From Luteolibacter sp. Y139 (GTDB lineage Bacteria > Verrucomicrobiota > Verrucomicrobiia > Verrucomicrobiales > Akkermansiaceae): a stretch of DNA of 64,000 bases. The stretch covers positions 124,001 through 188,000 of the forward strand of contig NZ_JBBUKT010000006.1 in assembly GCF_038066715.1 (NCBI RefSeq), in the 5' to 3' direction. Shown in pieces: positions 30,057 through 53,985 of this stretch; position 1 is the stretch's first letter, and each line of letters starts with the position of its first letter. A program made the position numbers and the translations under genes. Under the pieces are notes generated by a model. That model was given only the letters and a program-made list of their open reading frames with translations, did no database searches and was not told the origin of the DNA.

Positions 30057-32042
30057 TCACTGCGCCGAACCGTAAGCCTCCAGCTCGGTCAGGAACCCGT
30101 GGTTCTCGCTGTACTGGTCCTGCTTGTCGTGGTGATCGGCGAAAGTGGCGCGGACGAAGCGCACGGGGCGCTTGTCGAAGCGGAGCTCGGTGCCGGCGCG
30201 GGTCTTGCCGGCGAACTCGTGCTTGCCGACTTCCTGGAACTCCTTGCCGTCAGGGCTCACGGAAATGACGATGGTCTTGGTGGCGCCGTAATCCGGCACG
30301 CCGAAGCGCACGGCCTGGATGTCACGGGAGCGACCGAGGTCGAGAGTGACATGTTTCGGGAAAGCCGGGGCATCGCCGGTGGCGAAGCAGGAGCCCGCAC
30401 CACCTTCCCAATTGCCATCGGTGAGGCCGGCGTTCCAGCCGCTCTTGTTAGGATCGCTGGAGGTGAAGGGCTTTTGGAAGGCGACATTGCGGCCGAGCAC
30501 CGGATCATCCGGCCAGTGGGTGTGGAAGGAGGAGGCGGGCAGACCTTCCTTGTTCATCAGGTTCGGTTCGGCCTTCTGATACCAGCCGTAGCGGGCCATC
30601 ACCGGCTGGGCGACCTTGTCGGACTTGAGGACAACCTCGTTGCCAGCGATCTCGGCGGTGGCGGGCTGGAAGTTCCAGTCCGGGCCGGCGACTTCGAAGT
30701 AGCTCGGTGCCTTGCCATCGCGGGTGGCGAGGCCATCGGCGTATTGGAATTGGAGGCGGATGGAATTCCCGTCGACCTTGAAACTTTGATAAAGCGGGCC
30801 GGACTTCACGACGTTGGTTTTGCCGTAGGTATCGGCGAGTGCCCAGCGGGCGAGGCGGTATCCGACATCCAGCTTGTTCTTGGGGTGAATGTCATTGGGC
30901 GTGCCGATGTCCATGGTGACGGCCATGCCGGTGTGCGGGATCTTGAGGGCGTCACGTTGCGCGGCCCAGAGCGCTTGCAGGGCGCCTTCGCGTTCGTCGC
31001 CGTAGCCATACGGGGCGAGCTGGACGTAGAGGAAGGGTGCCTCGGGGACGGCGAACTGCTTCCGCCAGCCTTGGATCAGGGCCTGCATCTTCAGCGTGTA
31101 GAGCATCCCTTCACCGACATTCGACTCGCCCTGATACCAGAGGAAGCCGCGCAAGCCGTAAGGGACCAGCGGGTGAATCATCGCCTGATAGGTGCCGGTC
31201 GCCTGATTGGAACCGATCGGCAGCACTGGCGGCGCGGAAGGTTGGCCGGGCAGCGCCTGGTGAGCCTGGAGCGCCCGCTCGGCGGCATCCAGCCAGGCGC
31301 GGGTCGCGGTCAGGTGACGGCGCATGAGGTCATCATACTTCGGCGAGCCGGGCGTGCGGGCGTCGCGGAAGTCCCGCATGTCGCGCAAGTCCTCGATGCC
31401 CTCGAAGCCCTCGTCCGCCAGCCACGGCTCGATGCGCGAGCCGCCCCACGAGGAGTGGATCAGGCCGACCGGGACGCCGAGTTCCTCCGTCAGCTTGCGG
31501 CCGAAGAAATAGGCCACGGCAGAGAAGGGCATGGCCGAGTCGGGTGTGGCGGGAGTCCACTGGCCTTCGAAATCGTCCAGCCGGTAGGGAGAAAGTTTCT
31601 TGGGGACGGTGATCAGGCGGAGCAGGGGAACGGGTCCGGACTTCGCGATGTCTTGGTTCTCCTTGAGGGTCCCTCCGACGCTTAGCTCCATGTTCGACTG
31701 GCCGGAGGCGAGCCAGACCTCGCCGACGAGGACGTCCTTCACCTCCACGCGATTGCCGCCTTCCTCGGCGGCTTCGAGGACCCGGTTCTCGGCGGAGGCG
31801 GGCATGGCGTCCAGATCGATGCGCCATTTGCCATCGCCCGCCGCTTGCGCCGACTTCTCTTGGCCGGCGAATTTCACGGTGACCTTCTTGCCCGGATCGG
31901 CCTGGCCCCAGACCGGCACGGCGCGGTCGCGCTGCAGGACAGCCCCATCGGTGAAGATCCGCGGCAACCGCACTTCGGCGGTGGCGGGGAGCGCGGCAAA
32001 GGCGACCAAGGCCAAGGACAAGAAACGACTCGCTTGCGTCAT
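30057..32042 (-). CDS. Secreted sialate O-acetylesterase with C-terminal discoidin-like domain
   Basis: A 661-residue exported esterase of the SASA (SGNH hydrolase) family. Signal peptide to about residue 22; a beta-sandwich (PRIFTDGAVLQRDRAVPVWG) leads into the nucleophile block LASGQSNMELS (Ser116). Further blocks include VGLIHSSWGGSRIEPW and the WYQGESNV motif near residue 300. The last roughly 145 residues form an F5/8 type C (discoidin)-like carbohydrate-binding domain (TLDLGRSRDIQAVRFG). Known members remove O-acetyl groups from sialic acids or from xylan; the preference here is not decided. It is divergent from the metalloprotease array across a 354-base intergenic region. Confidence 0.87.
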   Translation of the reverse strand: MTQASRFLSLALVAFAALPATAEVRLPRIFTDGAVLQRDRAVPVWGQADPGKKVTVKFAGQEKSAQAAGDGKWRIDLDAMPASAENRVLEAAEEGGNRVEVKDVLVGEVWLASGQSNMELSVGGTLKENQDIAKSGPVPLLRLITVPKKLSPYRLDDFEGQWTPATPDSAMPFSAVAYFFGRKLTEELGVPVGLIHSSWGGSRIEPWLADEGFEGIEDLRDMRDFRDARTPGSPKYDDLMRRHLTATRAWLDAAERALQAHQALPGQPSAPPVLPIGSNQATGTYQAMIHPLVPYGLRGFLWYQGESNVGEGMLYTLKMQALIQGWRKQFAVPEAPFLYVQLAPYGYGDEREGALQALWAAQRDALKIPHTGMAVTMDIGTPNDIHPKNKLDVGYRLARWALADTYGKTNVVKSGPLYQSFKVDGNSIRLQFQYADGLATRDGKAPSYFEVAGPDWNFQPATAEIAGNEVVLKSDKVAQPVMARYGWYQKAEPNLMNKEGLPASSFHTHWPDDPVLGRNVAFQKPFTSSDPNKSGWNAGLTDGNWEGGAGSCFATGDAPAFPKHVTLDLGRSRDIQAVRFGVPDYGATKTIVISVSPDGKEFQEVGKHEFAGKTRAGTELRFDKRPVRFVRATFADHHDKQDQYSENHGFLTELEAYGSAQ

Positions 32043-32396
32043 GCGCGCGATTACGGAGCCCGCCGCCGGATTCTACCAGTTTGGATTCCTTATTTACCGC
32101 ATCATTATCGTTTCCTATGTGAGTCCGATTTGGGACTGGTGGTTATTTTGTGGGGTAAAAAGTGAGCAATTGGAAACTCATGTGTTGACCGTTAGGGGTG
32201 GGATGGGGCTTAAGTGATTAATACGCGAGGAGCTTCATGGTGCGCGCCGGTGCCGTTGAAGGTGACTTTCCCCGGCGTTTCGGAAGTTGCCATGACGGAG
32301 CCGTCCGTCTGGCGATTGCTCCGTTGATTCGTTTGTTGCAGCCCGGTCTCGACCTCGACTCGGGATCTGATTTCTTCCCGAGAAACCCGTTAACTC
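32043..32396. other. Divergent promoter region between esterase and first giant protease
   Basis: 354 bases with no gene I trust. The first part (about 32080-32240) is markedly A/T-rich and would hold divergent promoters; TTGACC at 32183-32188 is a possible -35. A TAAAAAGTGA decamer at 32156-32165 recurs at 41308-41317 before the second giant gene. The last part is G/C-rich leader with no clear Shine-Dalgarno before the ATG at 32397. Confidence 0.5.
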
Positions 32397-35300
32397 ATGA
32401 AAACCCGCCAACTCCTCCTGCTCAGCGCAGCATCGCTGGGCGTGATCACGGCCGTCGTGCTGTGGCCGGACTCAGGTCCGCGCGCCACTGCACCGGTTTC
32501 TAGCAAGGTCGCAAGCCTGCCACCGGTGGACGAGGAGGTCGCTCCGGAGGCTGGTGCCAATCCGGAGGTGAAAGGAGCTGAGGCCACGGCGGCTGTGGAT
32601 GAAGCGCCGGCTGATTTCGGAGCATGGGCGAGAGAAACCCCGCCGCAACCGGACTTATCGAAGATCGAGGCTTTCGATGGCTGGGTGGGGCGGTGGAAGG
32701 CCGCGACGCCGGAAGTACGCGTGGCGATGTCGGGGGAAGGGGCTCAGCTCGCGACGGCGCGTCGTCCGGAGTTCAAGGCGCTGATCGCGACGAATCCGCG
32801 GCTGGCCTTGGAGAAAGCGGTGCCGCGCGTGGTGCGGCAGGACTTGCCGGAGGAGATCGTGGCGCAGTTGGAGGCACCGGTTTCTTCCACAGGGGATTTC
32901 AATGTCTATCAGGGACGTCCCGCGGAGGGGATGCAACTGCGGGGCGACCAGCTCACGATGCGCTATTTCGAGGCGAATGGCGTGAGCTACAAGGCCCGGG
33001 TTTTCGGCGAACTGGAGAACGTCACCTCGCGAAAGGGCGTGCCGCTGCAAGGGGTGGCGGTCGATCGTGAATTGGCCATCGCTCAGAATGGGGTGCGGCC
33101 GCTGGAAGTGGGCGAGCGCATCCCCGCAGGCACGGTGGTCGAAGAAACCTGTCCGGTTTCCGGCGAGACGACCCAAGCTGTCTCGACCGGTGAAGCGGTG
33201 AGTGATCAGACGCCGACGGTCGAAATTGGCGGGCGCGTCATCACGCTTTGCAACGGCTCGCACGTCTCCGTGCTGGAAGATGAATACCGCACGTGGATCC
33301 AGGCGAGCGGACCCGGCGGTGCGGGCTTCTTCACGGACAATTTCCCGGGGACTTCATCGCGGGCGATCGGCAACCTTCGCTGCCTCTACATCCGGGCGAC
33401 GTATCAGGAACAGGTCTCGGCGCCGAATACCGAGGAGGAAGCCTACAGCGACATGCGGAATACCGCGCGCTACTACCTCGAAAGCTCGTATGGGAAGATG
33501 ACCACCACCACCACGGTCACCTCGCTGGTCACTCTGCCGCACACGATGGCATGGTACAAGGCGAAGGACGCCGATGTGGACGGACTCGGCCTGATTCACA
33601 CCGAGTCGCGCAATGAGGCGCGCAAGCTTGGCTACGACTCGAACCAATACGACTGCATCATCGTCCGCATCAATGGTGGTCCACGCCTCGAAGGCATCTC
33701 GTGGGGCGGCGGCTCCAGCGTGTGGATCACCTGGGGTGGCATGGACGTGCTCAATCACGAGTGCGGCCACTCGCTCGGCCGCAACCACGCGAACTACTGG
33801 AGCACGACCGACGGCACTGCCTACGGAAACGGAGCCAATGAGGAGTATGGCAACTCCTTCGACGTGATGGGCGGCGGCGGCGGCTTCAGCGCTCACTACA
33901 ATACCATCAGCAAGCGCGCCCTCGGCTGGCTGCCTGACGCCTATGTCCACCAGCCGAAGACGAACGGCGTCTATCGCATCTACGCCTACGACCAGCCGCA
34001 GCTCGAGGAAGGGAAGCGGTATGCGCTGACGGTGGCGAAGGACAGCGTCCGCCAATACAACGTCGAGTTCCACGAGGCGCGTGGCGGGCTGCTCGCGAAT
34101 TCAGCGTTGGTTCTCTACAGCGGCATGGGCAGCAATGCCGGCCACTTGCTCGATACCACACCGGGCAGTTCGGGCGGGAAGGGTGACGGGGGCATCGCCA
34201 TCGGTCGCACCTACTCCGACCTCGAGGCGGACATGCATTTCACGGTGATCGGGAAGAATGCGACTTCGCCGCCTTCCCTCGATGTCGCCTACTACCGCGG
34301 TCCATTTCCGGGTAACAACGCGCCGACGCTCACGCTCAATGCCAGCGCCACCACGATCGCGGCCAATGGCAGCGTGACCTTCACGGCGACAGCGAGCGAT
34401 GCCGATGGCGATGCGCTTGCCTACTACTGGGACTTCGATGATGGCGTTACGGCCGCGAATAGCGCGGTGGTGACCCGCACCTTCACGACGGTCTCGCAGG
34501 TGACGGCGATGCTGACCGTCTCCGACATGAAGGGCGGCACCGCCCGTCGCCATGTCGTGATCAACGTGGGCAGCCACGGCAAGCAGACGGTGACCGGCGC
34601 GATCACGTGGAATGCGCAGCCGCTGCAAGGCGTGCGGGTTTCGAATGGCACCAAGTACGCCTTTACCGATTCCAGTGGCAACTATGCGCTGTCGGGCCTC
34701 AGCACCGGCTCGAACACTCTGACTGCCACCCTGAACGGCTTCACCTTCACTCCGTCCTCCTCTACCAGTCCGCTCAATGTCGTCGCCGGTGCCAACACCG
34801 TCGACTGGACCGCCGGCAACTCGACCTTTGTCACGCTGACGAAGACGGCCGATCCGGTGGAGGGCGGAGCAAATGGCTCCTTCACGCTCACCCGCACCGG
34901 CGACACGACCGCGAGTCTCGCCGTCCGCGTTTCGCCGGTCGGAGGCACCGCGACGAAGACGACCGACTATACCTTCGCGCCCGACTACGTGTCAGATGGT
35001 AGCTATTGGACCTTCACGATTCCCGCGGGCCAGGCCTCGCTGGTGGTGAATGTGGCCGCGGTGAATGATACCGCGCAGGAAGGACCGGAAACGATCACGC
35101 TCCAGCTCGCGTCGAATGGCAATTATCTCTCGAACGCCGGCAATTCCATGGTGATGACGGTGGGTGACAACGACACCGCGCTGCCGCAGGTGGCCGTGGT
35201 TTCGAACGATCCCTATGCCACGGAAGCTCCCGCCGATGCCGCCAGCTTCACTTTCACGCGCATTGGTTCCACGGCCGCGGCGCTAAATGTGTCGGTTGCC

Positions 35301-41226: not shown

Positions 41227-41254
41227 AAGGGCGACGGTGTTCCGTCGCCCTTTT
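41227..41254 (+). terminator. Rho-independent terminator after first giant gene
   Basis: A perfect 11-bp stem (AAGGGCGACGG / CCGTCGCCCTT) around a TGTT loop, ending in TTTT, 35 bases after the stop. It separates the first giant gene from the second, so each has its own promoter. Confidence 0.85.
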
Positions 41255-41418: not shown

Positions 41419-44400
41419 ATGAACCCCACTAAATCCTTTGCCAGGAGAGCCCTCGGACTGACGCCATGGTGCATCTCCGGCCTTACTATCCTGACGGCAA
41501 ACGCGGCGGCCCCGGTCGCCTATGACGACGTGATCGCCGGCAAGGCGGACACACAACTCGTCCTCGATTACCTGTTGCTCAACGACACGGATGCTGATGG
41601 CAATACGCTGAGCATTTCCGCCGTCGGGGCGCCCGCCCATGGCACTCTAACAGCACTGGGTGGCAATAGCTACCGCTACACGCCCACCGCCGGCTACGCG
41701 GGACGGGACAGCTTCACCTACACCGTGGCGGATGGCACGGGCGGGACGGATACCGGGCTGGTGACCATCTCGGTCAATGCGGCTTATGACGTCGAGGCGG
41801 TGCGCACCGCGATCCTGACGGGAGTCGCGCAGCTCGCGGATCCCACCCAGCCGGGCCATATGAGCGTGTGGGGCCCCACCGCAGTGAGCATCTCGAACTA
41901 CGCGGGTCAGAACGAGACCCAGCCGATGATCGCGGCCGCGACGCTCGGGGCCGGACGGGTGGTGGTGATGCCGGACCACCAGTGGTTCAACATGGACAAC
42001 TACGGGAGCCAGTTCAACACCGGCACCTACTACCAGAACGCCATCAACTGGGCCGCCGGGACGACCAACAAGGGAATCGCGATCGTAACGGTCAATGCGG
42101 CGTGTTCGACGTGGCTCGCCGCACAGGGCTACACCAACGTGACCACCACGACGGAGGCAAACTTGCCGACCGCGCTGGCATCCGCGAATGTGCTCGTCGG
42201 CTGGCTCGGAAACAACACGCCTGCCGCGTCGATTTCCGCGGTATCCAATTTCCTGAGCAATGGTGGCGCCGCACTGCTTTGCGACTATTCGCCCGGCTAC
42301 TCCTGGTGGTGGGGCAAGCAGAAGTGGCAGATCCCGTCGGCGATTGCGTTGCGCGAAGCCGGTCTCGCCTTTGTTAGCGATGACCTCGTCTGGTCCGGTC
42401 CTTTCACGACCAACCGGGCGGACGACGTGATGACGCTGGATACCATCGTCAGCCTGATGGCGAATCCGGGAGCCTACACCCAGAACCAGAAGGACCTCGC
42501 GGTGGTAGTGATGCAGCGGATGCTCGAATCCCTCGATCCCAATGACATCGCCTACGCACGGCTGAATGCCGCCTTCAAGAATGCCGTCGGAGCGATCACG
42601 CCCACGCCGCTGGCACCGGTGACCGATTCATTCCAGCGCACGCTACTCAGCATCGAATGCTCGCAGCTCGCCAAGCTGGCGCCCGCATCGATGACTGCTC
42701 ATCGCGCTGCTCTGGCAGTAAGCCCGACCGCACCGCGCGTGACGAATGCGACCTTCGGCCTGGAGGCACCCGCGGCCGCGCATTCAGAGAAGACGATCTA
42801 CACGCCCTTCTATGCAGCGCCTGGCGAACTGGTAACGATCACGTTCCCCGCGGCGCTTTCGACCATCAATCTGGACGTGCGCACGAGCCATCTTCGTTCG
42901 GCTCCCGGTGACGCGACCAGCTATCCGGTGATGCCCGCTCAGATCATCAATCGGGATGTGACCAGCACCACGGTGCAGGTCGCGAATCCCCACGGCGGCC
43001 TCATCCAGATCATCGTGCCGAGCAATGTCACTTGGAGCGGCACCCAGAACATCACCGTCACGGGAGCGGTGCAGGCACCGTATTTCAAGCTGGGCACCAC
43101 CACCGATGCACAGTGGGTGGCGGGCATTCGCAGCCGAGGCACTCCTTTCGGCGTCATTGACTCGCCTGAAGCCACGCTGGTGGTCGATGCCGACAAGTGG
43201 TTGCGGACTCTCTCCGATCCGGAGGCGGTGATCACCGAGTGGAACTACTTCTGCGGAAAGGTCCGCCAGTTCTATGCCTACAATCCGGGCCGCCAGCTGC
43301 CGATGCACCACGACTTTTATGCAGCCGGTGGCGTGTCGACCTACCCGCAGTCGTATGACCTCACCGACGAGATCACCAACTCGCTCAACCTGAAGTCATC
43401 CGCCTACGCGCTGACGCTCCACGAATACGGCCACATCTGCGACTCGGATAATTTGCTGTTCAACGGCTTCGGCGAAACGAACCCGAACCTCGGCGGCAAG
43501 TGGCTCCAACAGACCGAGCGCAACTATGCGTGGAAGCAGTGCCTGGCTGTCGGCCGGGTCAATCGCTACCTCACCGTGGCGAGCGATCCCGACCTCTGGA
43601 CCGAGGAGGCCCACCATGCGGTGGATGTGAAAGTGGTTCCCTTTGACATCCTTTCCGCCCAATTCGGCCCGGCTCTTCTCAAGGACACCGTGGCGGCAAT
43701 GACGGCCTTGTCGCCGATCTCGACCAGCCAGGGGAAGATCGACGAATGGGTCCGCCAGCTCAGCAATCGCACGGGCTATGACATGACCACGTTTTTCGAG
43801 GCCTGGCTCTTGCCCGTGTCAGCGTCGGTGAAGACCGAGCTTTCGGGATTGCCCGATTGGATGCCGGTCGACCGGACTCCCGAGTCGCTCACGCTGGCGC
43901 AGGACACGACGGTCACCTTTGAGAATCCTGGCAGCAACGACTTCAGCTACGACGGCGGACTGAACCTGACCGCGGTTTCGCAGCCGGCTCACGGCGTGGT
44001 CGCGAACCTTGGCAATGGCAGCTACACCTATACGCCTGCTGCCGGCTACACCGGCTCCGATAGCTTCACCTACACGGTGACGAATGCCACCGGCAATGCG
44101 TTCGTTACCACGATCCCGGTGAAGGTCGTCGCCGCGGCGAATGATCCGAAACTGGTTGCCTTCGATGGCGTGGCGGATGGTTCCAACTGGACCCTGGTGC
44201 AGCTCGACAAAACCTACACCTCGATGGTCGTGGTCGCACAGCCGCTGGCCGGTGCCGGTGCGCCGCCGCTTGCCAGCCGCATTCGAAATGCCAGCGGCTC
44301 GTCCTTCGAGATCCGCCTGGATCGTCTGGATGGATCCGCCACACCGGTGGGACCCACTGGTGTGCGATACCTCGTCGTGGAAGCTGGGGTGTATAACCAG

Positions 44401-47400
44401 GCTACCCATGGCATCAAGATGGAGGCGGTGAAGTATACCTCAACCGTGACCGACCGCGGAGGATCCTTCACCGGCACCACCCGAGACTTCGCCTACACGG
44501 GCTACGACCACTACTTTATCCCCGCGGTCTTCGGCCAGGTGATGACCAGCAATGATGCTTCATGGTCGGCCTTCTGGTATCAGGCGACCGACAATCGCCT
44601 CACGCTCGGCAAGCATGTCGGTGAAGACCCGAATACGACCCGAGCCAATGAAACGGTCGGCTACATCGTGATGGAGTCGGGTTCCTATCAGTTCGGCAAT
44701 TATCAGATCCAGGTGGGTGGGCTCGGCTTCGATTCCTACGCCGGCCTCGGATCGCTCAGCGACAGCAGTGCCAGCCACAGCTTCCCGCGCTTTCCCACCA
44801 TCCATTCGGCGCAGCTCAGTGCCGACATGTCGGTCCCGTGGGGCGGCACCGATGCCGGGAAGGACGGCTACGTCGCGATGCAGACAGTGGTCGGCGGGAA
44901 TTCATTGGGCGGTTACCTGACCGAGGACTCGCTCGGCGATGCCGAGAAGACGACTGGCGAAAAAGGCGGTGCTTATCTGCTCGCGCATCGCACCGGCGGC
45001 GTGCCCTTCGCGAAGGCGGATCAAGGCCGGGCGATCTCCGGCACCTCGTCCTTGCTCGATGTGCTGGGCAATGACTCGGTGACCGGCAATCCCGTGGTGA
45101 ATATCACGCAGCCGGCACATGGCGCGGTCGTGATTCACACCGATGGCAAGCTGATCTACACGCCCACTGCCGGCTACACCGGTCCGGACGCATTCAGCTA
45201 CACCATCACCAGCGGATCTAACACCGCGACCGCGCCGGTCTCCCTGCAGGTGATCGCAAGCACAGCGGTGCAGGCGGGTGTCACGGCGGATCGTTTCAAC
45301 AACATCACCGGGGGCTCGGTCTCGAACCTGACCAGCAGCGCGAACTATCCGAACAGTCCAAGCACGCGGACCGTCTGGACTTCGGTGAATTCCGGCCAGA
45401 ACGTCGGCGACAATCTCGGCCACCGCATCTACGGCGTGGTCGTGGCGCCGACCACCGGCAACTACACGTTCTGGATCGCCAGCGATGACTCCAGCCAGTT
45501 CTCGCTAAGCACCGATACCGACCCCGCGAATGCGGTGATCAGCGCCAGCGTGAACGGATGGACGAACTATCAGGGCTGGGACGAGAATGCGTCGCAGATG
45601 ACCGCGGTGAAATCACTGATCGGTGGCCGCGCTTACTACTACGAGATCCTGCACAAGGAGGGCGGCGGTGGCGATCACGTCTCGGTTGCGTGGCAAGGCC
45701 CCGGCTTCGCCCGCAAGGTGCTGGCCACGCCAGACATCTACACTGCCGGTGAAAACGCTCCGACACTGGTCGCGGCTCCGGCCAACCAGAGCATGAACGA
45801 GAACGCGGCTCCGCTGGTGCTCAATGTCGGCGGCGTCTTCGTCAGCAGCGATCCCGGCGATCCGCTCACGCTCGCCGTCCATGCGAACAACAAGCCGACC
45901 CTCGTAGGCACCACGCTCAATGGCAGCCAGCTCACGCTCACGCGTCTCGGCTTCGAGACCGGCACGGCGACCATCACCTTGCGCGGCACCGATCGCACCA
46001 ACACGCTGGTCACCGCCAGCTTCACGGTGACGATCAATGACAATTTCCCGGACTCGGATGGCGATGGCCTGACTGATTCGTGGGAAGTCACCAACTTCGG
46101 CAGCGTGGGTGCCCAATCTGGCAGCGGCGATCCGGATGGCGATGGCTTGAGCAACGCCGGCGAACTCGCCGCAGGGACCAACCCCAACAATGTCGACAGC
46201 GACGGCGATACCTTCCGCGATGGCTTCGAAGCCGCCGCCGGTTCGAATCCGAATTCCAACAGCTCTACGCCGCAAGGGCTCTATGCAGGCCTTGCTTCCT
46301 GGTGGCGTCTCAATGAAACCACTGGCAGCACGGCGGCGGATGTGGCGGGAGCACACACCGGCACCGTCAGCGGCGCGGCGTGGGCCACCGGCATTTCCGG
46401 CAATGCGCTGAACTTCGATGGCATCGACGACGGTGTGCTCCCCGGCACTGCCGCGGCCCTCACCGGCAGCGGCAACTTCTCGGTGTCGGCTTGGGTCAAG
46501 ATCAACCCCGCTTCACCGCTGGGCACTGTCATCGAGCAGCGTGATCCTACCGGTTACGTCGGCGAGTATGCTCTCAATGTGAACGCCAGCGGCACGGTGA
46601 ACTTCATGGTCTACGGCTCCGGTGGCTATCAGTTCGACCTGACGACCACGGGCACGGTCAATGACGGCCAATGGCACCATGTCTCGGGCGTCCGCAACGG
46701 GACCTCGGGGAAGGTTTACATCGATGGCGTCGAGGCGGCGTCGGGCACCGGCACGCTTCAGGCCCTGCAATCCTTCGCGGTTTCCATCGGCTACGACAAC
46801 CGCGACAACAACAAGCGCTTCAAGGGCTTGATCGATGACGTTCGCATCTACACGCGTGCCTTGTCGGCCACTGAGGTCAGCGGGCTGCGTGACGCGCTGG
46901 TCCCGTTGCCTCTGCCGTGGAGCGATAGCGATGTTGGCACCGGTATCACCGCTGGCTCGGGCACCTATGCGTCCGGGACTGGCACTTACACGTTGTCTGG
47001 GGCAGGTGCTCTTGGCAGCGGCTTCCTCGCCAGCCAGAATGATGCCTTCAACTACGTGTGGCAGACGCTGAGCGGGGATGGCGAGATCATCGCCAAGATC
47101 AGCTCCTTGCAGGACACCAACACCGATTCGCGGATTGGCGTGATGATTCGCGACACGCTGGCGACGAATTCGCGCCATGTCTTCATGGGCATGACGGACG
47201 ACAACGACTACCGCTGGGTCCGCCGCACGACGGCTGGTGGCACCACATCGACGACCAACAGCAGCACCGGCACGGTGCCGAATACCTGGGTCCGTCTCAC
47301 CCGCGTCGGCACCACCATCACCGCCTACAAGAGCACCAATGGCACAAGCTGGACACAGGTGGGCAGCCTGAGTGCGAGCTTCGCCACCAATTGCTACATC

Positions 47401-47475
47401 GGTCTGGTGGTCGCCAGTGGCAGCGCCACGGGGCTGAATACGTCACAATTCAGCAACGTTAGTGTAACTCCATGA
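41419..47475 (+). CDS. Giant secreted M60-like metalloprotease with PA14 and LamG domains
   Basis: A 2018-residue protein from the ATG at 41419 (MNPTKSFARRALGLTPWC). Residues about 30-120 form a VCBS/cadherin-like domain; about 125-330 look like the amidotransferase-like fold that precedes M60 in TCAF-type proteins; about 560-810 form the peptidase domain with LHEYGHICDSDN (His668, Glu669, His672) and a downstream Glu in GFGETNP, the gluzincin pattern of M60 enhancin-like proteases, several of which cut mucin-type O-glycoproteins. Then an Ig-like domain, a beta-rich H-type-lectin-like region (about 910-1190), PA14 (about 1280-1430), a cadherin-like domain, Asp-rich TSP3 repeats (1540-1615), LamG (1620-1830), and the C-terminal module shared with both neighbours. 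Confidence 0.85.
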   Translation: MNPTKSFARRALGLTPWCISGLTILTANAAAPVAYDDVIAGKADTQLVLDYLLLNDTDADGNTLSISAVGAPAHGTLTALGGNSYRYTPTAGYAGRDSFTYTVADGTGGTDTGLVTISVNAAYDVEAVRTAILTGVAQLADPTQPGHMSVWGPTAVSISNYAGQNETQPMIAAATLGAGRVVVMPDHQWFNMDNYGSQFNTGTYYQNAINWAAGTTNKGIAIVTVNAACSTWLAAQGYTNVTTTTEANLPTALASANVLVGWLGNNTPAASISAVSNFLSNGGAALLCDYSPGYSWWWGKQKWQIPSAIALREAGLAFVSDDLVWSGPFTTNRADDVMTLDTIVSLMANPGAYTQNQKDLAVVVMQRMLESLDPNDIAYARLNAAFKNAVGAITPTPLAPVTDSFQRTLLSIECSQLAKLAPASMTAHRAALAVSPTAPRVTNATFGLEAPAAAHSEKTIYTPFYAAPGELVTITFPAALSTINLDVRTSHLRSAPGDATSYPVMPAQIINRDVTSTTVQVANPHGGLIQIIVPSNVTWSGTQNITVTGAVQAPYFKLGTTTDAQWVAGIRSRGTPFGVIDSPEATLVVDADKWLRTLSDPEAVITEWNYFCGKVRQFYAYNPGRQLPMHHDFYAAGGVSTYPQSYDLTDEITNSLNLKSSAYALTLHEYGHICDSDNLLFNGFGETNPNLGGKWLQQTERNYAWKQCLAVGRVNRYLTVASDPDLWTEEAHHAVDVKVVPFDILSAQFGPALLKDTVAAMTALSPISTSQGKIDEWVRQLSNRTGYDMTTFFEAWLLPVSASVKTELSGLPDWMPVDRTPESLTLAQDTTVTFENPGSNDFSYDGGLNLTAVSQPAHGVVANLGNGSYTYTPAAGYTGSDSFTYTVTNATGNAFVTTIPVKVVAAANDPKLVAFDGVADGSNWTLVQLDKTYTSMVVVAQPLAGAGAPPLASRIRNASGSSFEIRLDRLDGSATPVGPTGVRYLVVEAGVYNQATHGIKMEAVKYTSTVTDRGGSFTGTTRDFAYTGYDHYFIPAVFGQVMTSNDASWSAFWYQATDNRLTLGKHVGEDPNTTRANETVGYIVMESGSYQFGNYQIQVGGLGFDSYAGLGSLSDSSASHSFPRFPTIHSAQLSADMSVPWGGTDAGKDGYVAMQTVVGGNSLGGYLTEDSLGDAEKTTGEKGGAYLLAHRTGGVPFAKADQGRAISGTSSLLDVLGNDSVTGNPVVNITQPAHGAVVIHTDGKLIYTPTAGYTGPDAFSYTITSGSNTATAPVSLQVIASTAVQAGVTADRFNNITGGSVSNLTSSANYPNSPSTRTVWTSVNSGQNVGDNLGHRIYGVVVAPTTGNYTFWIASDDSSQFSLSTDTDPANAVISASVNGWTNYQGWDENASQMTAVKSLIGGRAYYYEILHKEGGGGDHVSVAWQGPGFARKVLATPDIYTAGENAPTLVAAPANQSMNENAAPLVLNVGGVFVSSDPGDPLTLAVHANNKPTLVGTTLNGSQLTLTRLGFETGTATITLRGTDRTNTLVTASFTVTINDNFPDSDGDGLTDSWEVTNFGSVGAQSGSGDPDGDGLSNAGELAAGTNPNNVDSDGDTFRDGFEAAAGSNPNSNSSTPQGLYAGLASWWRLNETTGSTAADVAGAHTGTVSGAAWATGISGNALNFDGIDDGVLPGTAAALTGSGNFSVSAWVKINPASPLGTVIEQRDPTGYVGEYALNVNASGTVNFMVYGSGGYQFDLTTTGTVNDGQWHHVSGVRNGTSGKVYIDGVEAASGTGTLQALQSFAVSIGYDNRDNNKRFKGLIDDVRIYTRALSATEVSGLRDALVPLPLPWSDSDVGTGITAGSGTYASGTGTYTLSGAGALGSGFLASQNDAFNYVWQTLSGDGEIIAKISSLQDTNTDSRIGVMIRDTLATNSRHVFMGMTDDNDYRWVRRTTAGGTTSTTNSSTGTVPNTWVRLTRVGTTITAYKSTNGTSWTQVGSLSASFATNCYIGLVVASGSATGLNTSQFSNVSVTP

Positions 47476-47518
47476 TGGGGGAGTTATTCCGGGTGTAAGG
47501 CCTTGGAAAAGAAAAAGT

Positions 47519-47546
47519 CCCTCCTTGCTCTGGCAGGGAGGGGTTT
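47519..47546 (+). terminator. Probable terminator after second giant gene
   Basis: A CCCTCC / GGGAGGG stem with additional imperfect pairs, followed by TTTG, 44 bases after the stop of the M60-like gene. The T-run is short, so termination may be partial. Confidence 0.6.
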
Positions 47547-47593
47547 GCTATTTCGCGCGCGCGGATTACCCCTTCCGCGCACCCTCACCCGAA

Positions 47594-50500
47594 ATGCGCA
47601 GCCCCTCCCTGGCGGCCTCCTTGTTACTCTCACTGCTGGCGATTTCCCTATGGTGGAGTCATCGCCCGCCGGAAGGGCCACGCGCTCCAGAGGCGGCCAT
47701 GGTGGTGCAATCGCCCGATACCGGACAACTGCCAAGTCCATCGACGAAGGCTGCAGACCGGCCTCTCCCGGAGAAGCGGGAAGCGCGGTCGGCCAAGCTT
47801 TCGTCCGACGTTCTCACCCGGGCTGTCGATGGGAAGCGATTCCATCTGGAACTGCCGGACGGCCGTGAGGCGATAGGGGATGTCTCACAGGTCCGGCGGG
47901 ATGTCGGTGGGAACGTCTCGCTCGTCGAAGGGGTCATCACTGCACCTCAAGCGGGTCGTTACTTCTTCCAACACGCCGACTTCGAGGGCGTGGCTGGTGA
48001 ACTTGTCGGACACATCCTCTTTGAAGGCTCTCCGTGGGGTTGGAAAGTCGAGCCTTCGGGTGTGGGCAGAGCGCCGCTGCTGGTGGAGACCCACGAGGAT
48101 CGCATCCTCTGCGTGAACTACGCGGTGGCTCCGGTTGGCGAAGTCGAGGAGGCTCCGCAGGCTCACCCGACAAACATTCCCATCCCATCCTACCAGACGA
48201 TCATTCCGCTGCAGAGCTTGCCTGGCGCGACCGGCGTCATCTATCTCGACTTCGATGGGGAGAAGGGTCCTTTTCCCGGTTGGGGGGATTTCGATGCGGC
48301 ACCACCGCTGGTGAACAACAACCAGATCTTCGAAGTCTGGAAGCGGGTGGTGGAGGACTACCAGGGCTTCAACCTGAACATCACGACCGATCGCGCAGTC
48401 TTCGACTCGGCTGACGAGGGCAACCGCCAGCATGTGGTGGTCTCGCCGACCACCACGGCGGCGCCCACTGCCGGCGGGGTGGCCTATGTCGGCTCCTACA
48501 ATTGGCCGGGTGACACCGTGTGCTGGGCCTTTTACAGCACTGGCAAGACCTCGGCGGAGGTGATCTCGCATGAAGTCGGGCACACGCTGAATCTCAGCCA
48601 TGACGGCAGGATCTCGCCCAGCGAGGGATACTATGCCGGCCACGGCAATGGTGTCACCGGCTGGGCTCCGATCATGGGGGTGGGCTACTACGAAAATCTC
48701 ACCCAATGGTCGAAGGGCGAATACACCAGCGCCAACAACACCGAGGATGACCTGGCGATCATCGTGTCCAACAACGATGTGGACTACCGCGAGGACGACA
48801 CCGGAGACACGCTCGTCACCGCCCGCTATCTGGAGATCGCGGCGAACGACAGCGTCTCGGGCGAAGGCATCATCGAGAGGACCGGCGACGTGGACGCCTT
48901 TCGCTTCACGACGACGGGTGGCGCGGTTTCGCTCACCCTTGGTCCGGCTGCCGCCAGTCCCAACCTCGACATCCTCGCCGAGCTCGTGGAAGCTAGTACG
49001 GGGACCGTCGTAGCTACTTCGAATCCGGATCTGTCCATCACAGCATCGATCTCCGACACCCTCGACGCGGGGGAATACCTCCTGAGGATCCGCGGCACCG
49101 GTCGCGGGGACCCCGAGGTGGACGGCTACTCGGACTATGGATCGCTCGGCACCTATCTCATCAGCGGCAGCGTGGCCGGTGGGGTGAAGCCGGAGCGTTT
49201 CACCATCGTGGAAAACAGCCCGGCTGGCACCTTCGTGGGGACCGTGCCCGCGCGTGAGGATCACGGACTTTCACCACTGCTGTGGAGCATTTCCGGCGGC
49301 GATGGGAGCGGGCTGTTCTCGATCAATCCGCTGACCGCCGAACTTGTCGTCACGTCGGTCCTGGATTTCGAGACGCTTTCCACCCGCTGGGATGATCCCG
49401 CGACGCTCGAACTCTTCGTCACCGCCACCGACACGCTCAATGCGGCGCTCACCGAGACGATCCGGGTGGTGGTGACGGTGGCCGACGTGAATGAACTCTC
49501 CGTCATGAGCGACGCCTCAGTGACGATGCTGGAGCACACCCGCCCGGGCACCAAACTCTTCACGGTGGCGGCGGACGATCCCGATCACTTCCAGTTTCCC
49601 GTCTTCAGCATCGTCGGAGGCAATGGCGACGGCTGGTTTGAAATCGATGCGGGAACGGGCGAACTCCGCGTCACCGGAAACATTGACGTTAGTTCGGACA
49701 TCACCGTGCCACTGGTAGTGCGGGTGACCGACCAAGGAACGCCTCCGCTTGTCGCCACTACCACTGTCAATGTGACGGTGCTCAATATTGCCGGCGGCTA
49801 TCAGCCGGGAGCGGTGATGCGCACTTATTTCGAGGGCATCGGCGGCAGCGCCGTCAGCAATCTCACCACGAATTCGAGATTTCCGAATCAGCCCGACAGC
49901 CAGGAGCTGGTGGAAGACTTCGACGGGCATGGCCATGGCGATAGCTTCGGCAGCACGCTGCGCGGTTACGTGATCCCGCCGGTGACCGGCAGCTACCGCT
50001 TCTGGATCGCTGCCGATGAGTCGGCCCAGCTCCGGCTCAGCACTACAACGAGTCCCTCGAACGCCACGGCCATCGCCTCCGTCTCCGAGTCGACCGACCC
50101 CTACGAATGGCTCGACGGTGGCAGCCAGATGTCGTCTCCCGTCACCCTGGTGGCCGGTCAGGCCTACTACATCGAGGCCCGCCACAAGGACTCCTCGGGT
50201 GACGATCACGTCTCGGTCGCGTGGTCGGGTCCGGGCATGCCGAAGCAGCTTCTCCGCGGCCTCTTTGTGGCCCCTTATGAGCAGAATTACGCGCCGGTGA
50301 TTCCCACGGTTTCGTTCCCGGTTCACGACGATGCCTTCGCCGGACAAGAAGTCGGCACGGCCACCGTGAACGATGTGAATGCCGGTGACAGCCACGGCGA
50401 CTTTGCCATCGTCGATGGAAATGAAGCCGGCATCTTCGCCATCGATCCGGTCACCGGCGTGCTGCGGGTCGCCGCGGCGAATTTGTTAGATCCGGGAGTG

Positions 50501-53080
50501 CAATCGATGCACGTGCTCACGGTGAGCGCCAGTGACAATGCAAGTCCGCCGCTGTCCGGCACCGGCACGATCATTGTCGCGGTGCTCCAGCCGGGTGAGT
50601 TTGCCGTGACCAACCTTTTCCAACAGGTGTGGACCGGCATCGTCGGAAGCAGCGTCACCTATCTCACGTCGAACCTCAGATACCCGTACCGGCCTTCGTC
50701 GATCCGCTACTTGTCCGGCTTCGAGAGTGATGCGAACATCGGCGACAGCTACGGCTCGCGGATCCGGGCGCTGGTCATTCCACCGGCGAGCGGGAGCTAC
50801 ACCTTCTATCTGTCGTCGGACGAGGACTCGCGGCTTTTGTTAGGAAGCGGGCCGCAGGCGGCCGGCGCGGTGCAGATCGCGTCAGTCACCGGCTACACCG
50901 CCGAGGACGAGTGGACCAAGTTCGCCTCGCAGAAGTCAGCGCCGGTCCAGCTCGTCGAGGGCGAGGCCTACTACATCGAAGTGCTTCACAAGGAGAACAC
51001 CGGTGCCGACCACCTGCAGGTGGGATGGACCGGGCCGGGCATTCCTTCCGTCACGGTCATTCCCGCCTGGGCGCTGGAGCCGTATGATCTCAATGAGGCA
51101 CCCGTGTTCGGAAATGGCGCCGCTTCGTTCAGCGTCATGGAAGGCGCTCCTGCGGGCACGGTGATCGGCACCCTCGCGGCCACCGATCCGGAAGGGGACT
51201 CGCCGCTTCACGCGATCACCGCCAGTGCCGTGCCGGGTGCGTTCGCCATCGACGTGAACACCGGCGTGCTCACCGTGGCGAATCCCGCGGCGTTGAATTC
51301 TCCGGGCGTGAAAGCCATCACGGTATCCGCCCAAGACCGCGGTATCGGCGGCATCTATCCGCTCAAGGCCGGCTCCATCGCAGTCGAGATCACGGTCATC
51401 AGCAATAACCAGCCGCCAGCCTTTGTCGCGGACCCGATCGCGCTGGCCGCCACTGAGGATGCATCTTTCTCCGACCATCTAACAGCCTCTGATCCCGATG
51501 CAGGTGATGTGATCACCTTCACGAAAATCGGCGGCCCCGAGTGGCTGATCGTCGCTCCGGATGGCTCGCTTAGCGGCACTCCGGAAAATGACGATGTCGG
51601 GCCGAATGAGTTCGTCGTCCAAGTGGCCGATCCCGAGAACTTCTCCGATCAGGCGACGCTGACGATTTCCGTCGCCAATACCAATGACGCGCCCTCATTT
51701 GTCGCCCTGCCGCTGACCCTCGATGCAGCGACCGAGGACCAGCCCTACCTCGCCACGGTGGCTTCATTCGCGGGCGATCCCGATGCCGGTGATTCCCTCG
51801 TCTTCGAAAAAGTCTCCGGCCCCGGCTGGCTCACCGTCGCGCCCGATGGCTCGCTCTCCGGAACGCCATCGAATGAGGATACCGGCGAGCATTCCTTCGT
51901 CGTCCGTGTGACGGATCTCGCCCAAGCCTCTGCCGAAGCCACGGTGATGGTGTTCGTAGTGAACACGAATGATTCTCCGGTAATCTCCACGCCTGTCGTC
52001 CCGTCCGCGACCCAGGATGCCGCCTACACCGCCAGCCTCGCCGCTTTCGCCGCCGATCCGGATGCAGGTGATTCGCTGGTCTTTTCGAAAGTCTCGGGAC
52101 CAGGGTGGCTCATCATCGGCACCGATGGCAGCCTCGGCGGCACGCCCTCGAATGCCGACGTGGGCGATCATGACTTCGTGGTCCAGGTGACGGATGGTGC
52201 CGGCGCGTTTGCCCAGGCCACTGCTTCAATCACCGTGGAAAACGTCAATGACGCCCCGGTCTTCACCATCGATCCCATCGTGGCCGCCGTCGGGACCGAG
52301 GAAGTGGCCTACACCGGCGCCACCATCGCTGGCATCGCCGTGGATCCCGATGCAGGGGAAGCACCGGCTTACTCGCTCGTCGACGGCCCTCCTTGGCTCT
52401 CGGTCGCGCCGGAGGGCACGCTTTCCGGAACCCCGCCCGCCGGCAGTTCGGGGACGAACACCTTCAGGGTCCGCGCCACCGATCCCGCGGGCCTTTTCGC
52501 CGAGGCCACGCTGGTCATCGAGATCGCGTCGGCGCTGCCCCTGCCGTGGGAAGAGTCCACCATCGGTAGCGGTCCGGCCGGGAGTAGCGTGGCGCTCGGG
52601 GATAACCTCATCCTCACCGGCCAAGGTTCGCTGGCGGGGCGGAATGACGGCCTGCACTTCGTTTGGCAGACCTTGGACAGCGATGGCACCATCATCGCCC
52701 GGCTGGACTCGCTCGAGAGTGCCAGCCCGGGCGCACTCGCGGGCATCATGATCCGGGACACGCTGGCCACGAATTCTCGCCACGTCTTCATCGGCATGAC
52801 CGGCGGAAGCGGCTACCGCTGGATCCGCCGCACGGGCCTGAATGGCAATACTTCCACCTCCACCAGCGGCACCGGTGCCGTGCCGGATGCCTGGCTGCGC
52901 CTCACCCGCACGGGAAATACCATCACCGCCTCGAAGAGCCCCGATGGCGTGGCGTGGGCCACCGTCGGCAGCCTGACCGCGGCACTGCCGCCGACCTGCT
53001 ATTTTGGGCTGGCGGTCACGGGCAGTAGCGCTGAGGTTGAAAACACCGCGACCTTCAGCCACGTTTCCGTTACCCCGTGA
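47594..53080 (+). CDS. Giant secreted metzincin-type protease with PPC, cadherin, PA14 and He_PIG repeats
   Basis: A 1828-residue protein from the ATG at 47594 (MRSPSLAASLLLSLLAISLWW), giving a signal peptide. A pro-region (to about 200) precedes a protease domain with ISHEVGHTLNLSHDG: His326, Glu327, His330, His336, with Asn333 where metzincins have Gly, and an IMGVGYY Met-turn. Then a PPC-type domain (about 405-530), two cadherin-like domains (535-735), PA14 (740-900), a cadherin-like domain, PA14 (about 1015-1160), a cadherin-like domain, four to five He_PIG repeats with SGTP linkers (about 1275-1650), and the C-terminal module of the two preceding proteins in a more divergent form. The last codon overlaps the next gene's GTG. 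Confidence 0.85.
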   Translation: MRSPSLAASLLLSLLAISLWWSHRPPEGPRAPEAAMVVQSPDTGQLPSPSTKAADRPLPEKREARSAKLSSDVLTRAVDGKRFHLELPDGREAIGDVSQVRRDVGGNVSLVEGVITAPQAGRYFFQHADFEGVAGELVGHILFEGSPWGWKVEPSGVGRAPLLVETHEDRILCVNYAVAPVGEVEEAPQAHPTNIPIPSYQTIIPLQSLPGATGVIYLDFDGEKGPFPGWGDFDAAPPLVNNNQIFEVWKRVVEDYQGFNLNITTDRAVFDSADEGNRQHVVVSPTTTAAPTAGGVAYVGSYNWPGDTVCWAFYSTGKTSAEVISHEVGHTLNLSHDGRISPSEGYYAGHGNGVTGWAPIMGVGYYENLTQWSKGEYTSANNTEDDLAIIVSNNDVDYREDDTGDTLVTARYLEIAANDSVSGEGIIERTGDVDAFRFTTTGGAVSLTLGPAAASPNLDILAELVEASTGTVVATSNPDLSITASISDTLDAGEYLLRIRGTGRGDPEVDGYSDYGSLGTYLISGSVAGGVKPERFTIVENSPAGTFVGTVPAREDHGLSPLLWSISGGDGSGLFSINPLTAELVVTSVLDFETLSTRWDDPATLELFVTATDTLNAALTETIRVVVTVADVNELSVMSDASVTMLEHTRPGTKLFTVAADDPDHFQFPVFSIVGGNGDGWFEIDAGTGELRVTGNIDVSSDITVPLVVRVTDQGTPPLVATTTVNVTVLNIAGGYQPGAVMRTYFEGIGGSAVSNLTTNSRFPNQPDSQELVEDFDGHGHGDSFGSTLRGYVIPPVTGSYRFWIAADESAQLRLSTTTSPSNATAIASVSESTDPYEWLDGGSQMSSPVTLVAGQAYYIEARHKDSSGDDHVSVAWSGPGMPKQLLRGLFVAPYEQNYAPVIPTVSFPVHDDAFAGQEVGTATVNDVNAGDSHGDFAIVDGNEAGIFAIDPVTGVLRVAAANLLDPGVQSMHVLTVSASDNASPPLSGTGTIIVAVLQPGEFAVTNLFQQVWTGIVGSSVTYLTSNLRYPYRPSSIRYLSGFESDANIGDSYGSRIRALVIPPASGSYTFYLSSDEDSRLLLGSGPQAAGAVQIASVTGYTAEDEWTKFASQKSAPVQLVEGEAYYIEVLHKENTGADHLQVGWTGPGIPSVTVIPAWALEPYDLNEAPVFGNGAASFSVMEGAPAGTVIGTLAATDPEGDSPLHAITASAVPGAFAIDVNTGVLTVANPAALNSPGVKAITVSAQDRGIGGIYPLKAGSIAVEITVISNNQPPAFVADPIALAATEDASFSDHLTASDPDAGDVITFTKIGGPEWLIVAPDGSLSGTPENDDVGPNEFVVQVADPENFSDQATLTISVANTNDAPSFVALPLTLDAATEDQPYLATVASFAGDPDAGDSLVFEKVSGPGWLTVAPDGSLSGTPSNEDTGEHSFVVRVTDLAQASAEATVMVFVVNTNDSPVISTPVVPSATQDAAYTASLAAFAADPDAGDSLVFSKVSGPGWLIIGTDGSLGGTPSNADVGDHDFVVQVTDGAGAFAQATASITVENVNDAPVFTIDPIVAAVGTEEVAYTGATIAGIAVDPDAGEAPAYSLVDGPPWLSVAPEGTLSGTPPAGSSGTNTFRVRATDPAGLFAEATLVIEIASALPLPWEESTIGSGPAGSSVALGDNLILTGQGSLAGRNDGLHFVWQTLDSDGTIIARLDSLESASPGALAGIMIRDTLATNSRHVFIGMTGGSGYRWIRRTGLNGNTSTSTSGTGAVPDAWLRLTRTGNTITASKSPDGVAWATVGSLTAALPPTCYFGLAVTGSSAEVENTATFSHVSVTP

Positions 53081-53985
53081 CCCGCTCGATCCAATTTCCC
53101 GCCGCTGTCTTGTCCTCGCTGCTGCTCTTTTCCGCCTGTGAAAAGAAAAGCGAGTCCACCGCTTCGTCCACGTCCCCGGACAAGGAAAGCCCCGGTACCC
53201 CCGGCAAGTCGACCAAGACCGAGCGCCACGGCGGCACCCGCGCCGAGCGCGAGGCCGAGGCCAAGACCAAGCTCCGCGAGGATTTCGAGGCGGCCGCGAA
53301 GATCACCGATCCCGCCGATCGCGAGAAAGCCCTCGCCGCCGTCGCGTGGGACGCCATCGATACCGATCGCGAGCTCGCGGAAAAGGCCTTTGCCGCCCTC
53401 ACTCCGGGCAGCGAGGAGTCCCGGAAGCTGGTGGCTCATTTCGCCATGCGCTTGGCCGATGAAAATCCGGAGACCGCGCTCGAGTGGGCCCGCAACTTGG
53501 ACGAGGGCGAGCGTGAGGATGCCGTCGGCCGCGTGATTTCGGTCATCGCCGCCACCGATCCCACCCGCGCCGCCGCCCTCGCCACCGAGGAAGTCCCGGA
53601 AGGCCCGCAGCGCGACCGCACCGTCGTTCAGGTTGTCCAACGTTGGTCCCAGAAGGCTCCCTCCGAGGCCGGCATGTGGGTCACTTCGCTTCCTGAAGGA
53701 GGCGGCCGCAAGGGCGCCCTGATCAATCTCGCCCGGACCTGGTCGCAAGCGGACGCCTCCGGCTTTGCCAACTGGGCCTCCACGCAGGAAGCCAAGCTTC
53801 CCGAAATGGCCTTCGCCGTCGCCACGCTGCTCCGCACCATGCCGGATGAAGAGCAGCGGAAGAAGCAGCTCGCCACCTTCACCGACCCCGCCTTCCGCCA
53901 ACGCGTCGAAGCCGAATACAAGAAGACCACCCTCCAGCTCCCACCCATGGGCAAGCCGCCGGGAGGTCTGGCGCCGCAGAAGTAA
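53077..53985 (+). CDS. Lipoprotein coupled to the third giant protease
   Basis: A 302-residue protein starting at a GTG that overlaps the preceding stop (GTGA), so its translation is coupled to the giant protease gene. The signal ends in a lipobox (LLFSAC, Cys21), then a charged Ser/Thr/Glu linker to about residue 60, and an all-helical solenoid of roughly 35-residue repeats (ENPETALEWARNLDEGERE, TDPTRAAALATEEVPEGPQRD, KAPSEAGMWVTSLPEGGGRK) resembling Sel1/TPR-like arrays of verrucomicrobial lipoproteins. Such a protein could anchor, fold or inhibit the protease; that is inference from the coupling. Confidence 0.72.
   Translation: MTRSIQFPAAVLSSLLLFSACEKKSESTASSTSPDKESPGTPGKSTKTERHGGTRAEREAEAKTKLREDFEAAAKITDPADREKALAAVAWDAIDTDRELAEKAFAALTPGSEESRKLVAHFAMRLADENPETALEWARNLDEGEREDAVGRVISVIAATDPTRAAALATEEVPEGPQRDRTVVQVVQRWSQKAPSEAGMWVTSLPEGGGRKGALINLARTWSQADASGFANWASTQEAKLPEMAFAVATLLRTMPDEEQRKKQLATFTDPAFRQRVEAEYKKTTLQLPPMGKPPGGLAPQK

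What the first reader, a model, noticed from the sequence alone, without database searches (positions are those of the whole stretch)
30057..53985. Array of three giant metalloproteases with different catalytic heads and a common tail, beside a sialate O-acetylesterase
Three consecutive secreted proteins (2931, 2018, 1828 aa) carry three unlike zinc sites (HECGHSLGRNH, HEYGH of M60 type, HEVGHTLNLSH) but end in the same C-terminal module of about 185 residues and reuse PA14, LamG and He_PIG/cadherin units in different orders. This looks like domain-swapping on a fixed chassis. The divergent esterase of the SASA family, the M60-like head and the coupled lipoprotein suggest a system for stripping and cutting O-glycosylated, possibly O-acetyl-sialylated, proteins. 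The combination as one locus is not something I know as a described system. Domain identities are read from motifs; substrate is inference.
Basis: partly seen in the sequence, partly recalled or inferred. Interest (0 to 1): 0.78.

Follow-up and report, generated by a model that had tools for sequence, protein, structure and literature searches.

The report
Proteases sharing a tail and lipoprotein
A bacterium that seems related to Akkermansia carries, at one conserved spot in its genome, a changeable set of giant secreted protein-cutting enzymes that end in the same tail, with a small lipoprotein gene overlapping the last of them, which may be an undescribed way of delivering different enzymes to the same place on the cell.

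Summary
In detail: three giant secreted proteins with three different zinc-protease heads end in the same tail of about 186 residues. The reading needs correcting. The tail is a DUF1349-like jelly-roll. The wider family is often an internal domain, but a close subfamily is the exact C-terminus of giant secreted enzymes. In 34 such proteins the head is a metalloprotease in 25, DUF6288 in 7, a dehydrogenase in 1 and unseen in 1; a subtilase occurs outside that set.

The stronger finding is the lipoprotein gene behind the array. In 18 loci a helical-repeat lipoprotein gene overlaps the stop codon of a tail gene. Of 18 genomes in the genus, 12 hold both lipoprotein and close tail, and 6 hold neither. 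None of 46 internal tails had such a neighbour; 26 of 55 terminal tails did.

The locus is conserved in nine genomes: divergent SASA esterase, variable slot (empty, M6-like, M60, DUF6288, or M6-like plus M60), M12-like protease, then the lipoprotein in eight. The window's M60 protein matches a relative elsewhere (63%) only up to the tail, so it probably gained the tail here.

I propose a tail-lipoprotein docking or export module. Binding, location and substrate are untested; the sialic-acid reading is unsupported.

The parts
30057..32042 (-). SASA-family esterase with C-terminal F5/8-type domain, divergent from the array; an orthologue lies beside the array in 8 other genomes of the genus
   Evidence: Pfam SASA 60.0 bits, cut-off 24.8; tblastn 73-88% in L069, L070 (cut by the stretch; whole in L221), L071, L146, L147, L149, L150, L157
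32397..41192 (+). Giant secreted protein 1 (2931 aa): M6-like metzincin head, PKD, Calx-beta, PA14 x2, LamG, He_PIG repeats, terminal tail
33756..33788 (+). Zinc motif HECGHSLGRNH of the M6-like head
40632..41189 (+). C-terminal tail 1 (DUF1349-like jelly-roll)
   Evidence: AF2 model pLDDT 94.3; PDB fold match
41227..41254 (+). Terminator-like hairpin with a run of four U after gene 1
   Evidence: -23.1 kcal/mol, z -5.3; not listed by the stricter consensus scan
41419..47475 (+). Giant secreted protein 2 (2018 aa from ATG): M60 head, PA14, TSP3, LamG, terminal tail; probable newcomer to the locus
   Evidence: Pfam M60 69.7 bits, M60-like_N 28.2 bits; homology to the G048 relative ends just before the tail
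43420..43434 (+). Zinc motif HEYGH of the M60 head, with Glu after a further 13 residues
46909..47472 (+). C-terminal tail 2, groups with tails of M6-like proteins
47594..53080 (+). Giant secreted protein 3 (1828 aa from ATG): M12-like metzincin head, cadherin, PA14 x2, He_PIG, terminal tail; last protease of the locus in all 9 genomes compared
48569..48601 (+). Zinc motif HEVGHTLNLSH (metzincin glycine replaced by Asn)
52538..53077 (+). C-terminal tail 3
53077..53985 (+). Helical-repeat lipoprotein (302 aa, lipobox Cys21); start codon overlaps the stop of gene 3 (GTGA)

Best explanation
The locus is a conserved two-part delivery module with exchangeable enzymes. The shared C-terminal DUF1349-like jelly-roll is a portable address tag on giant secreted enzymes. 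The small lipoprotein behind the array, predicted to be an alpha-helical solenoid, is the partner of that tag and holds (or guides) tail-bearing enzymes at the cell envelope. New enzymes join by acquiring the resident tail: in the window an M60-type gene has entered between the M6-like and M12-like proteases. Shown here: tail homology and predicted fold, conserved locus with changing heads, overlapping lipoprotein gene, co-occurrence in genomes. Inferred: that tail and lipoprotein touch, that the site is the outer surface, and that the enzymes act together on extracellular (glyco)protein.
For: All 18 close lipoproteins found right behind a tail gene overlap its stop codon; 6 of these (G060, G062, G064, G065, G067, L168) were not in the model that found them. 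In 18 genus genomes, lipoprotein (>=170 bits) and close tail (>=180 bits) are both present in 12 and both absent in 6 (thresholds set after seeing the score gaps). In the 60-genome family sample both occur in 10, lipoprotein only in 1, close tail only in 0. Terminal tails have a helical-repeat partner downstream in 26 of 55 assessable, internal tails in 0 of 46. Tail and lipoprotein distances correlate over the 18 pairs (Mantel r 0.786, 0 of 10000 permutations as high), and in two genomes with two cassettes the subfamilies pair off; linkage and shared descent could also give this. The lipoprotein is coupled in the same way to tail proteins with DUF6288 heads (L079; L145 = L173), so it follows the tail rather than a protease. 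Conserved locus with changing heads. Tail gain by M60.
Against: No direct evidence of binding or location. 22 of 55 terminal tails have neither a partner nor a tail gene next, so a partner acting in trans must be assumed. Six full-length lipoproteins (G013, G401, G419, G423, G425, G426), a partial one (G267) and a copy with a stop codon (G048) have no tail gene beside them in the stretches fetched. G422 and G427 have a terminal tail (218 and 171 bits) but no lipoprotein hit at 1e-15. The lipoprotein model was built from coupled loci, the genomes are related, and not every candidate was scored (at most 42 per genome), so the counts are neither independent nor exhaustive. Gene 1 has its own terminator-like hairpin, so the array is not clearly one operon. 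One M60 relative elsewhere (L048) also has a tail, though a distant, internal one (42% identical).
Confidence: 0.5

Rival explanations
1. The lipoprotein is an export or folding helper for very large tail-ending proteins (pilotin- or foldase-like), not a surface dock.
For: The overlapping start suggests matched synthesis; in some less close cases the partner seems to have an N-terminal hydrophobic anchor instead of a lipobox (L045, L158, L246, L248, L250, read by eye), which fits a periplasmic role better than a surface one.
Against: The predicted structure is a helical solenoid with no PDB match at E<=0.001, so it names no mechanism; secretion genes were not searched for.
Confidence: 0.25
2. 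The tail is simply a carbohydrate-binding jelly-roll at the end of secreted enzymes, and the lipoprotein is a co-inherited neighbour.
For: After the two closest structures the fold neighbours include lectins, polysaccharide lyases and CBM66; the wider tail family occurs in other proteins of several phyla; linked genes would also give the distance correlation.
Against: Overlap in 18 of 18 adjacent pairs, coupling to several head types, and 0 of 46 internal tails with the partner.
Confidence: 0.17
3. The lipoprotein protects the producer from its own proteases (inhibitor or immunity role).
For: It sits at the end of protease arrays.
Against: It is coupled in the same way to DUF6288-headed tail proteins with no HExxH motif (L079, L145).
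Confidence: 0.05
4. One reading: a system dedicated to O-acetyl-sialylated O-glycoproteins.
For: M60 head; the SASA gene is part of the conserved locus; 5 BNR_2 matches in the genome, 4 over the cut-off.
Against: SASA stays where the slot holds no M60 (G060, G062). The SASA family name does not establish a sialate substrate (own knowledge). PMC10540074 (passages seen) reports mucin CAZyme families including GH33 as absent from non-Akkermansia relatives (its data not shown).
Confidence: 0.03

Closest known systems
M60-like/PF13402 peptidases (Nakjang 2012, PMC3267712, passages seen; Akkermansia O-glycopeptidases, search listing only)
   Same: PF13402 and M60-like_N domains, HExxHx(8,28)E pattern, secreted, glycan-binding-type accessory domains
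   Different: Here on a giant protein with a DUF1349-like terminal tail, in a multi-protease locus of a genus that is presumably free-living
DUF1349 (PF07081)
   Same: All 34 close terminal tails match at E<=0.01; best PDB fold matches are 3o12 and 3mep, which I recall as DUF1349 proteins
   Different: Here the exact C-terminus of giant enzymes, often beside a helical-repeat lipoprotein gene
C-terminal sorting domains with a cognate system (T9SS CTD, recalled; PEP-CTERM, PMC1569441, search listing only)
   Same: Portable C-terminal module on unrelated enzymes, co-occurring with a partner gene
   Different: Large folded jelly-roll; the candidate partner is a helical lipoprotein whose gene overlaps the tail gene; no sorting-domain model appears (that NCBIfam holds such models is recalled)
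Polysaccharide/mucin utilisation loci (recalled)
   Same: Linked esterase, protease and binding modules
   Different: No SusC/D among the 10 neighbouring ORFs scanned; the constant elements are esterase, last protease, tail and lipoprotein, while other enzymes vary

Membership tests
M60-like peptidase (PF13402) | Pfam match over cut-off | tested here: met
   69.7 bits vs 25.8
M60-like peptidase (PF13402) | HExxHx(8,28)E (pattern from PMC3267712 passages) | tested here: met
   HEYGH, 13 residues, E
M60-like peptidase (PF13402) | Cleavage next to O-glycosylated residues | not testable with these tools
   needs enzyme assay
M6 peptidase (TIGR03296) | NCBIfam cut-off | tested here: not met
   32.7 bits vs 110.8; the profile finds no PDB chain at E<=0.1
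M6 peptidase (TIGR03296) | HExxHxxGxxH and Met-turn (motifs recalled) | tested here: met
   HExxHxxGxxH in all 13 aligned heads; FDVMG in the window, the Met is Leu in 2 of 13
M12-type metzincin | Pfam Reprolysin cut-off | tested here: not met
   Reprolysin_5 26.6 vs 27, Reprolysin_3 20.5 vs 22.4
M12-type metzincin | HExxHxxGxxH | tested here: not met
   Gly is Asn in the window; of 11 aligned heads, window included, 8 have Gly, 2 Asn, 1 Ser
M12-type metzincin | Profile similarity to solved metzincins | tested here: met
   weak: alkaline protease 9e-4, snake-venom metalloproteinases from 0.0025, ADAMTS-5 0.0047
DUF1349 (PF07081) | Pfam cut-off | tested here: inconclusive
   isolated tail 1 34.8 vs 32.4 bits; 34 of 34 match at E<=0.01; below the cut-off in the three whole proteins
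DUF1349 (PF07081) | Fold | tested here: met
   AF2 pLDDT 94.3; 3o12 and 3mep at E 4e-9 to 1e-8, TM 0.72-0.77; that these are DUF1349 proteins is recalled
SASA | Pfam cut-off | tested here: met
   60.0 vs 24.8
SASA | Sialate substrate | not testable with these tools
   needs assay
T9SS CTD / PEP-CTERM | NCBIfam sorting-domain match | tested here: not met
   none listed at E<=0.01
Bacterial lipoprotein | Signal peptide with lipobox Cys | tested here: met
   Cys21 invariant in 11 of 11 rows, in at least 90% of 20 rows, one of them cut at its N-terminus; signal read by eye
Outer-surface lipoprotein | Surface exposure | not testable with these tools
   needs localisation

The most novel reading that the evidence does not exclude
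A previously undescribed C-terminal addressing system of Verrucomicrobiota: a folded DUF1349-like jelly-roll ending exactly at the protein's C-terminus is recognised by a helical-repeat lipoprotein (or a membrane-anchored relative) whose gene overlaps or follows the last tail gene, so that unrelated enzymes can be swapped onto one envelope docking or export route.
Probability: 0.4. Interest if true: 0.82.

Novelty: new variant of a known kind. Interest (0 to 1): 0.62.

Why it matters
How these bacteria export and hold very large secreted enzymes is, as far as I know, unclear. A portable tail with a linked lipoprotein gives a directly testable candidate, and the changing slot is a natural experiment in how a bacterium exchanges its extracellular proteases, including a peptidase type well studied in gut Akkermansia.

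Tried and rejected
Rejected or dropped: tail always on proteases (DUF6288, GSDH and S8 heads found); array as one clear operon (terminator-like hairpin after gene 1; the hairpin after gene 2 is weak, 5 of 200 shuffles as good); lipoprotein as protease inhibitor (coupled to DUF6288 proteins); a known RNA element (no Rfam hit at gathering score in 29000-54600). I first took the G070 hit for a lipoprotein inside a 2191-aa ORF; the frame runs through N upstream of it, so it cannot be judged. I first thought that all chassis domains were swapped together: against G048 the homology runs through PA14, TSP3 and LamG and stops only at the tail, while two other M60 relatives diverge earlier; a fourth, in G030, passed no filter there and was not compared. 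A PDB search with the M60 head alone gave only 5 unrelated weak hits. Paper searches: DUF1349 (7 papers, none on this judging by titles and abstract starts), DUF6288 (0), the multidomain combination (0), and further word combinations around Verrucomicrobia, lipoprotein, C-terminal domain and proteases showed no description in the listings; the library lacks most subscription papers. Not done: structure prediction of any head, complex prediction, search for secretion genes.
Full report
OBSERVATION. The three ORFs, the divergent SASA gene and the small gene behind them lie as described. Tails 2 and 3 are 74% and 60% identical to tail 1. Pfam finds M60 (69.7 bits) in protein 2, weak reprolysin matches in protein 3 (26.6 bits, just below the cut-off) and SASA (60 bits) in the esterase; NCBIfam gives a weak M6 match in protein 1 (32.7 bits against a cut-off of 110.8). 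A profile of 11 M12-like heads finds solved metzincins weakly (best 9e-4); a profile of 13 M6-like heads finds no solved structure at E<=0.1. All 11 M12-like heads keep HExxHxLxLxH, but the usual metzincin glycine is Asn in the window and in L157, Ser in L069 and Gly in the other 8.

THE TAIL. A model of tail 1 built on an alignment of 70 tails has mean pLDDT 94.3. Its best solved matches are 3o12 and 3mep (E 4e-9 to 1e-8), then polysaccharide lyases, lectins and CBM66 among others. I recall the first two as DUF1349 proteins; Pfam agrees, since all 34 close terminal tails match DUF1349 at E<=0.01, tail 1 just over the cut-off. In the wider family the domain often lies inside other proteins. 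The close subfamily differs: in all 34 members of alignment A3 the protein ends with the domain. The last residue is Pro in 88% of 42 tails that end within 10 residues of the C-terminus, and in 11% of 28 internal ones at that column.

WHAT THE TAIL IS ATTACHED TO. Among those 34, heads are M6-like in 13, M12-like in 9 (two subtypes), M60 in 3, DUF6288 in 7, GSDH in 1, and unseen in 1 that is cut by the fetched stretch. This rests on Pfam or NCBIfam for the proteins scanned and on motifs and homology for the rest. A subtilase (132.6 bits) occurs on a further terminal tail, L176.

THE LIPOPROTEIN. One search showed relatives of the small lipoprotein behind tail genes in many loci. I found 18 close lipoproteins right behind a tail gene; in all 18 the start codon overlaps the stop (NTGA or TGATG). 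One of these, G033, is split between two contig ends, and only the start of the gene is seen after the tail. With it, in 60 family genomes, 14 hits score 196 bits or more and the next 92 (at most 42 candidates per genome were scored and the list was cut). Five further genus genomes (G060, G062, G064, G065, G067) and one named MAG (L168) showed the overlap without having been in the model. In the 18 genomes of the genus, 12 have both lipoprotein (>=170 bits) and close tail (>=180 bits); 6 have neither, though 4 of these 6 hold distant tails of at most 107 bits. The thresholds were set after seeing the gaps; Fisher gives 5e-5 and ignores relatedness. In the 60-genome sample both occur in 10, lipoprotein alone in 1 (G013), close tail alone in none. 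In a class-wide sample of 384 genomes, 13 have a lipoprotein hit at 1e-35, 12 of them in the same family (at most 6 candidates per genome scored). Tail and lipoprotein distances over the 18 pairs correlate (r 0.786; 0 of 10000 permutations as high), and in G051 and G033, which hold two cassettes each, the subfamilies pair off. The lipoprotein model is all-helical (pLDDT 86.7) with no PDB match at E<=0.001.

TERMINAL AGAINST INTERNAL TAILS. Over all fetched loci (tails of 60 bits or more and at least 140 residues, identical copies merged, ORFs running off the stretch dropped, one further duplicate row removed), 26 of 55 terminal tails with at least 900 bases downstream have a helical-repeat partner of 40 bits or more, 7 are followed by another tail gene within 400 bases, and 22 have neither (one of these, in L070, has its next tail gene further off). 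Of 46 internal tails with such room none has the partner and 2 are followed by a tail gene (Fisher 4e-9, relatedness ignored). Five terminal and four internal tails lacked room. Seventeen of the 26 partners are close lipoproteins; nine are weaker repeat proteins (56-103 bits). In five loci that I read by eye (L045, L158, L246, L248, L250) the weaker partner's N-terminus looks like a hydrophobic anchor without a lipobox.

RESULTS AGAINST. Full-length lipoproteins with no tail gene beside them in the stretch fetched occur in G013, G401, G419, G423, G425 and G426, a partial one in G267, and a copy with a stop codon in G048. G423 and G425 lie on short contigs (about 6 kb), so their surroundings are only partly visible. 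All of these genomes except G401 hold tails elsewhere, those of G267 weak. G070 has a run of N before its lipoprotein gene and could not be judged.

THE CONSERVED LOCUS. An orthologue of the SASA gene (73-88%) lies beside the array in 8 other genomes of the genus; G048 and G030, which also have lipoprotein and tail, showed none in the stretches fetched. Between SASA and the last protease the slot is empty in G060 and G062, M6-like in G039, G019, G006 and G064, a different M60 type in G067 and DUF6288 in G065; in the window it holds M6-like plus M60. In all nine the last protease is M12-like. It is followed by the lipoprotein in 8; in G065 its reading frame stops about 100 bases from the contig end, before any tail. 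Relatives of the window's M60 head (71-76%) lie elsewhere in G039 (two) and G048, a further one (47%) in G030. Against the G048 relative the window protein aligns at 62.7% up to residue 1851 of the stop-to-stop frame; the tail begins at 1862 and is not found there. One G039 relative has no tail; the other (L048) has a distant internal one, 42% identical. In a tree of 69 tails the window's M60 tail groups with tails of M6-like proteins (local support 0.97). So the M60 gene most likely gained the resident tail on entering the locus; loss or replacement of tails elsewhere is the alternative.

A SECOND CASE. In G039 three proteins share near-identical internal tails and the same 86-87-residue ending (branch lengths 0.02-0.05, support 0.999). 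One has an M60 head, one a reprolysin-type head, and the third, cut at the stretch's edge, only an HExxH motif. Tails therefore do move between heads.

NAMES. 

MECHANISM. The lipoprotein goes with the tail across head types, so it most likely serves the tail. Docking at the envelope is my first choice, export or folding help the second. The enzymes look like extracellular proteases, one of a type linked elsewhere to mucin and host glycoprotein (PMC3267712, passages seen). No substrate is shown.

Noticed in passing
L046 (G039:C18) and L048 (G039:C3): Three proteins with unlike N-terminal parts (M60, reprolysin type, one with only an HExxH motif) share almost identical tails plus the same 86-87-residue C-terminal extension: a second, recent case of tail exchange.
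   Followed up: partly
window 48569-48601; L069, L157: The glycine of the metzincin motif is Asn in the window and in L157 and Ser in L069, while 8 other aligned heads have Gly.
   Followed up: partly
window 28387-29616: A glucose/sorbosone dehydrogenase gene lies next to the SASA gene; a GSDH head is also found on a terminal tail in L163.
   Followed up: no
L246, L248, L250: In more distant genomes terminal tails are followed by helical-repeat proteins that seem to have a hydrophobic N-terminal anchor instead of a lipobox (by eye).
   Followed up: partly
window 55471-57714: Schlafen group 3 type helicase domain (158 bits).
   Followed up: no
window 59904-63977 (-): Large protein (1357 aa) with LamG, lamin-tail domains and CotH kinase.
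   Followed up: no
L079, L075, L073, L162, L173, L175: DUF6288, a family named in no paper of the library searched, is a frequent head on these tails, in some with PDZ or HEAT matches.
   Followed up: partly
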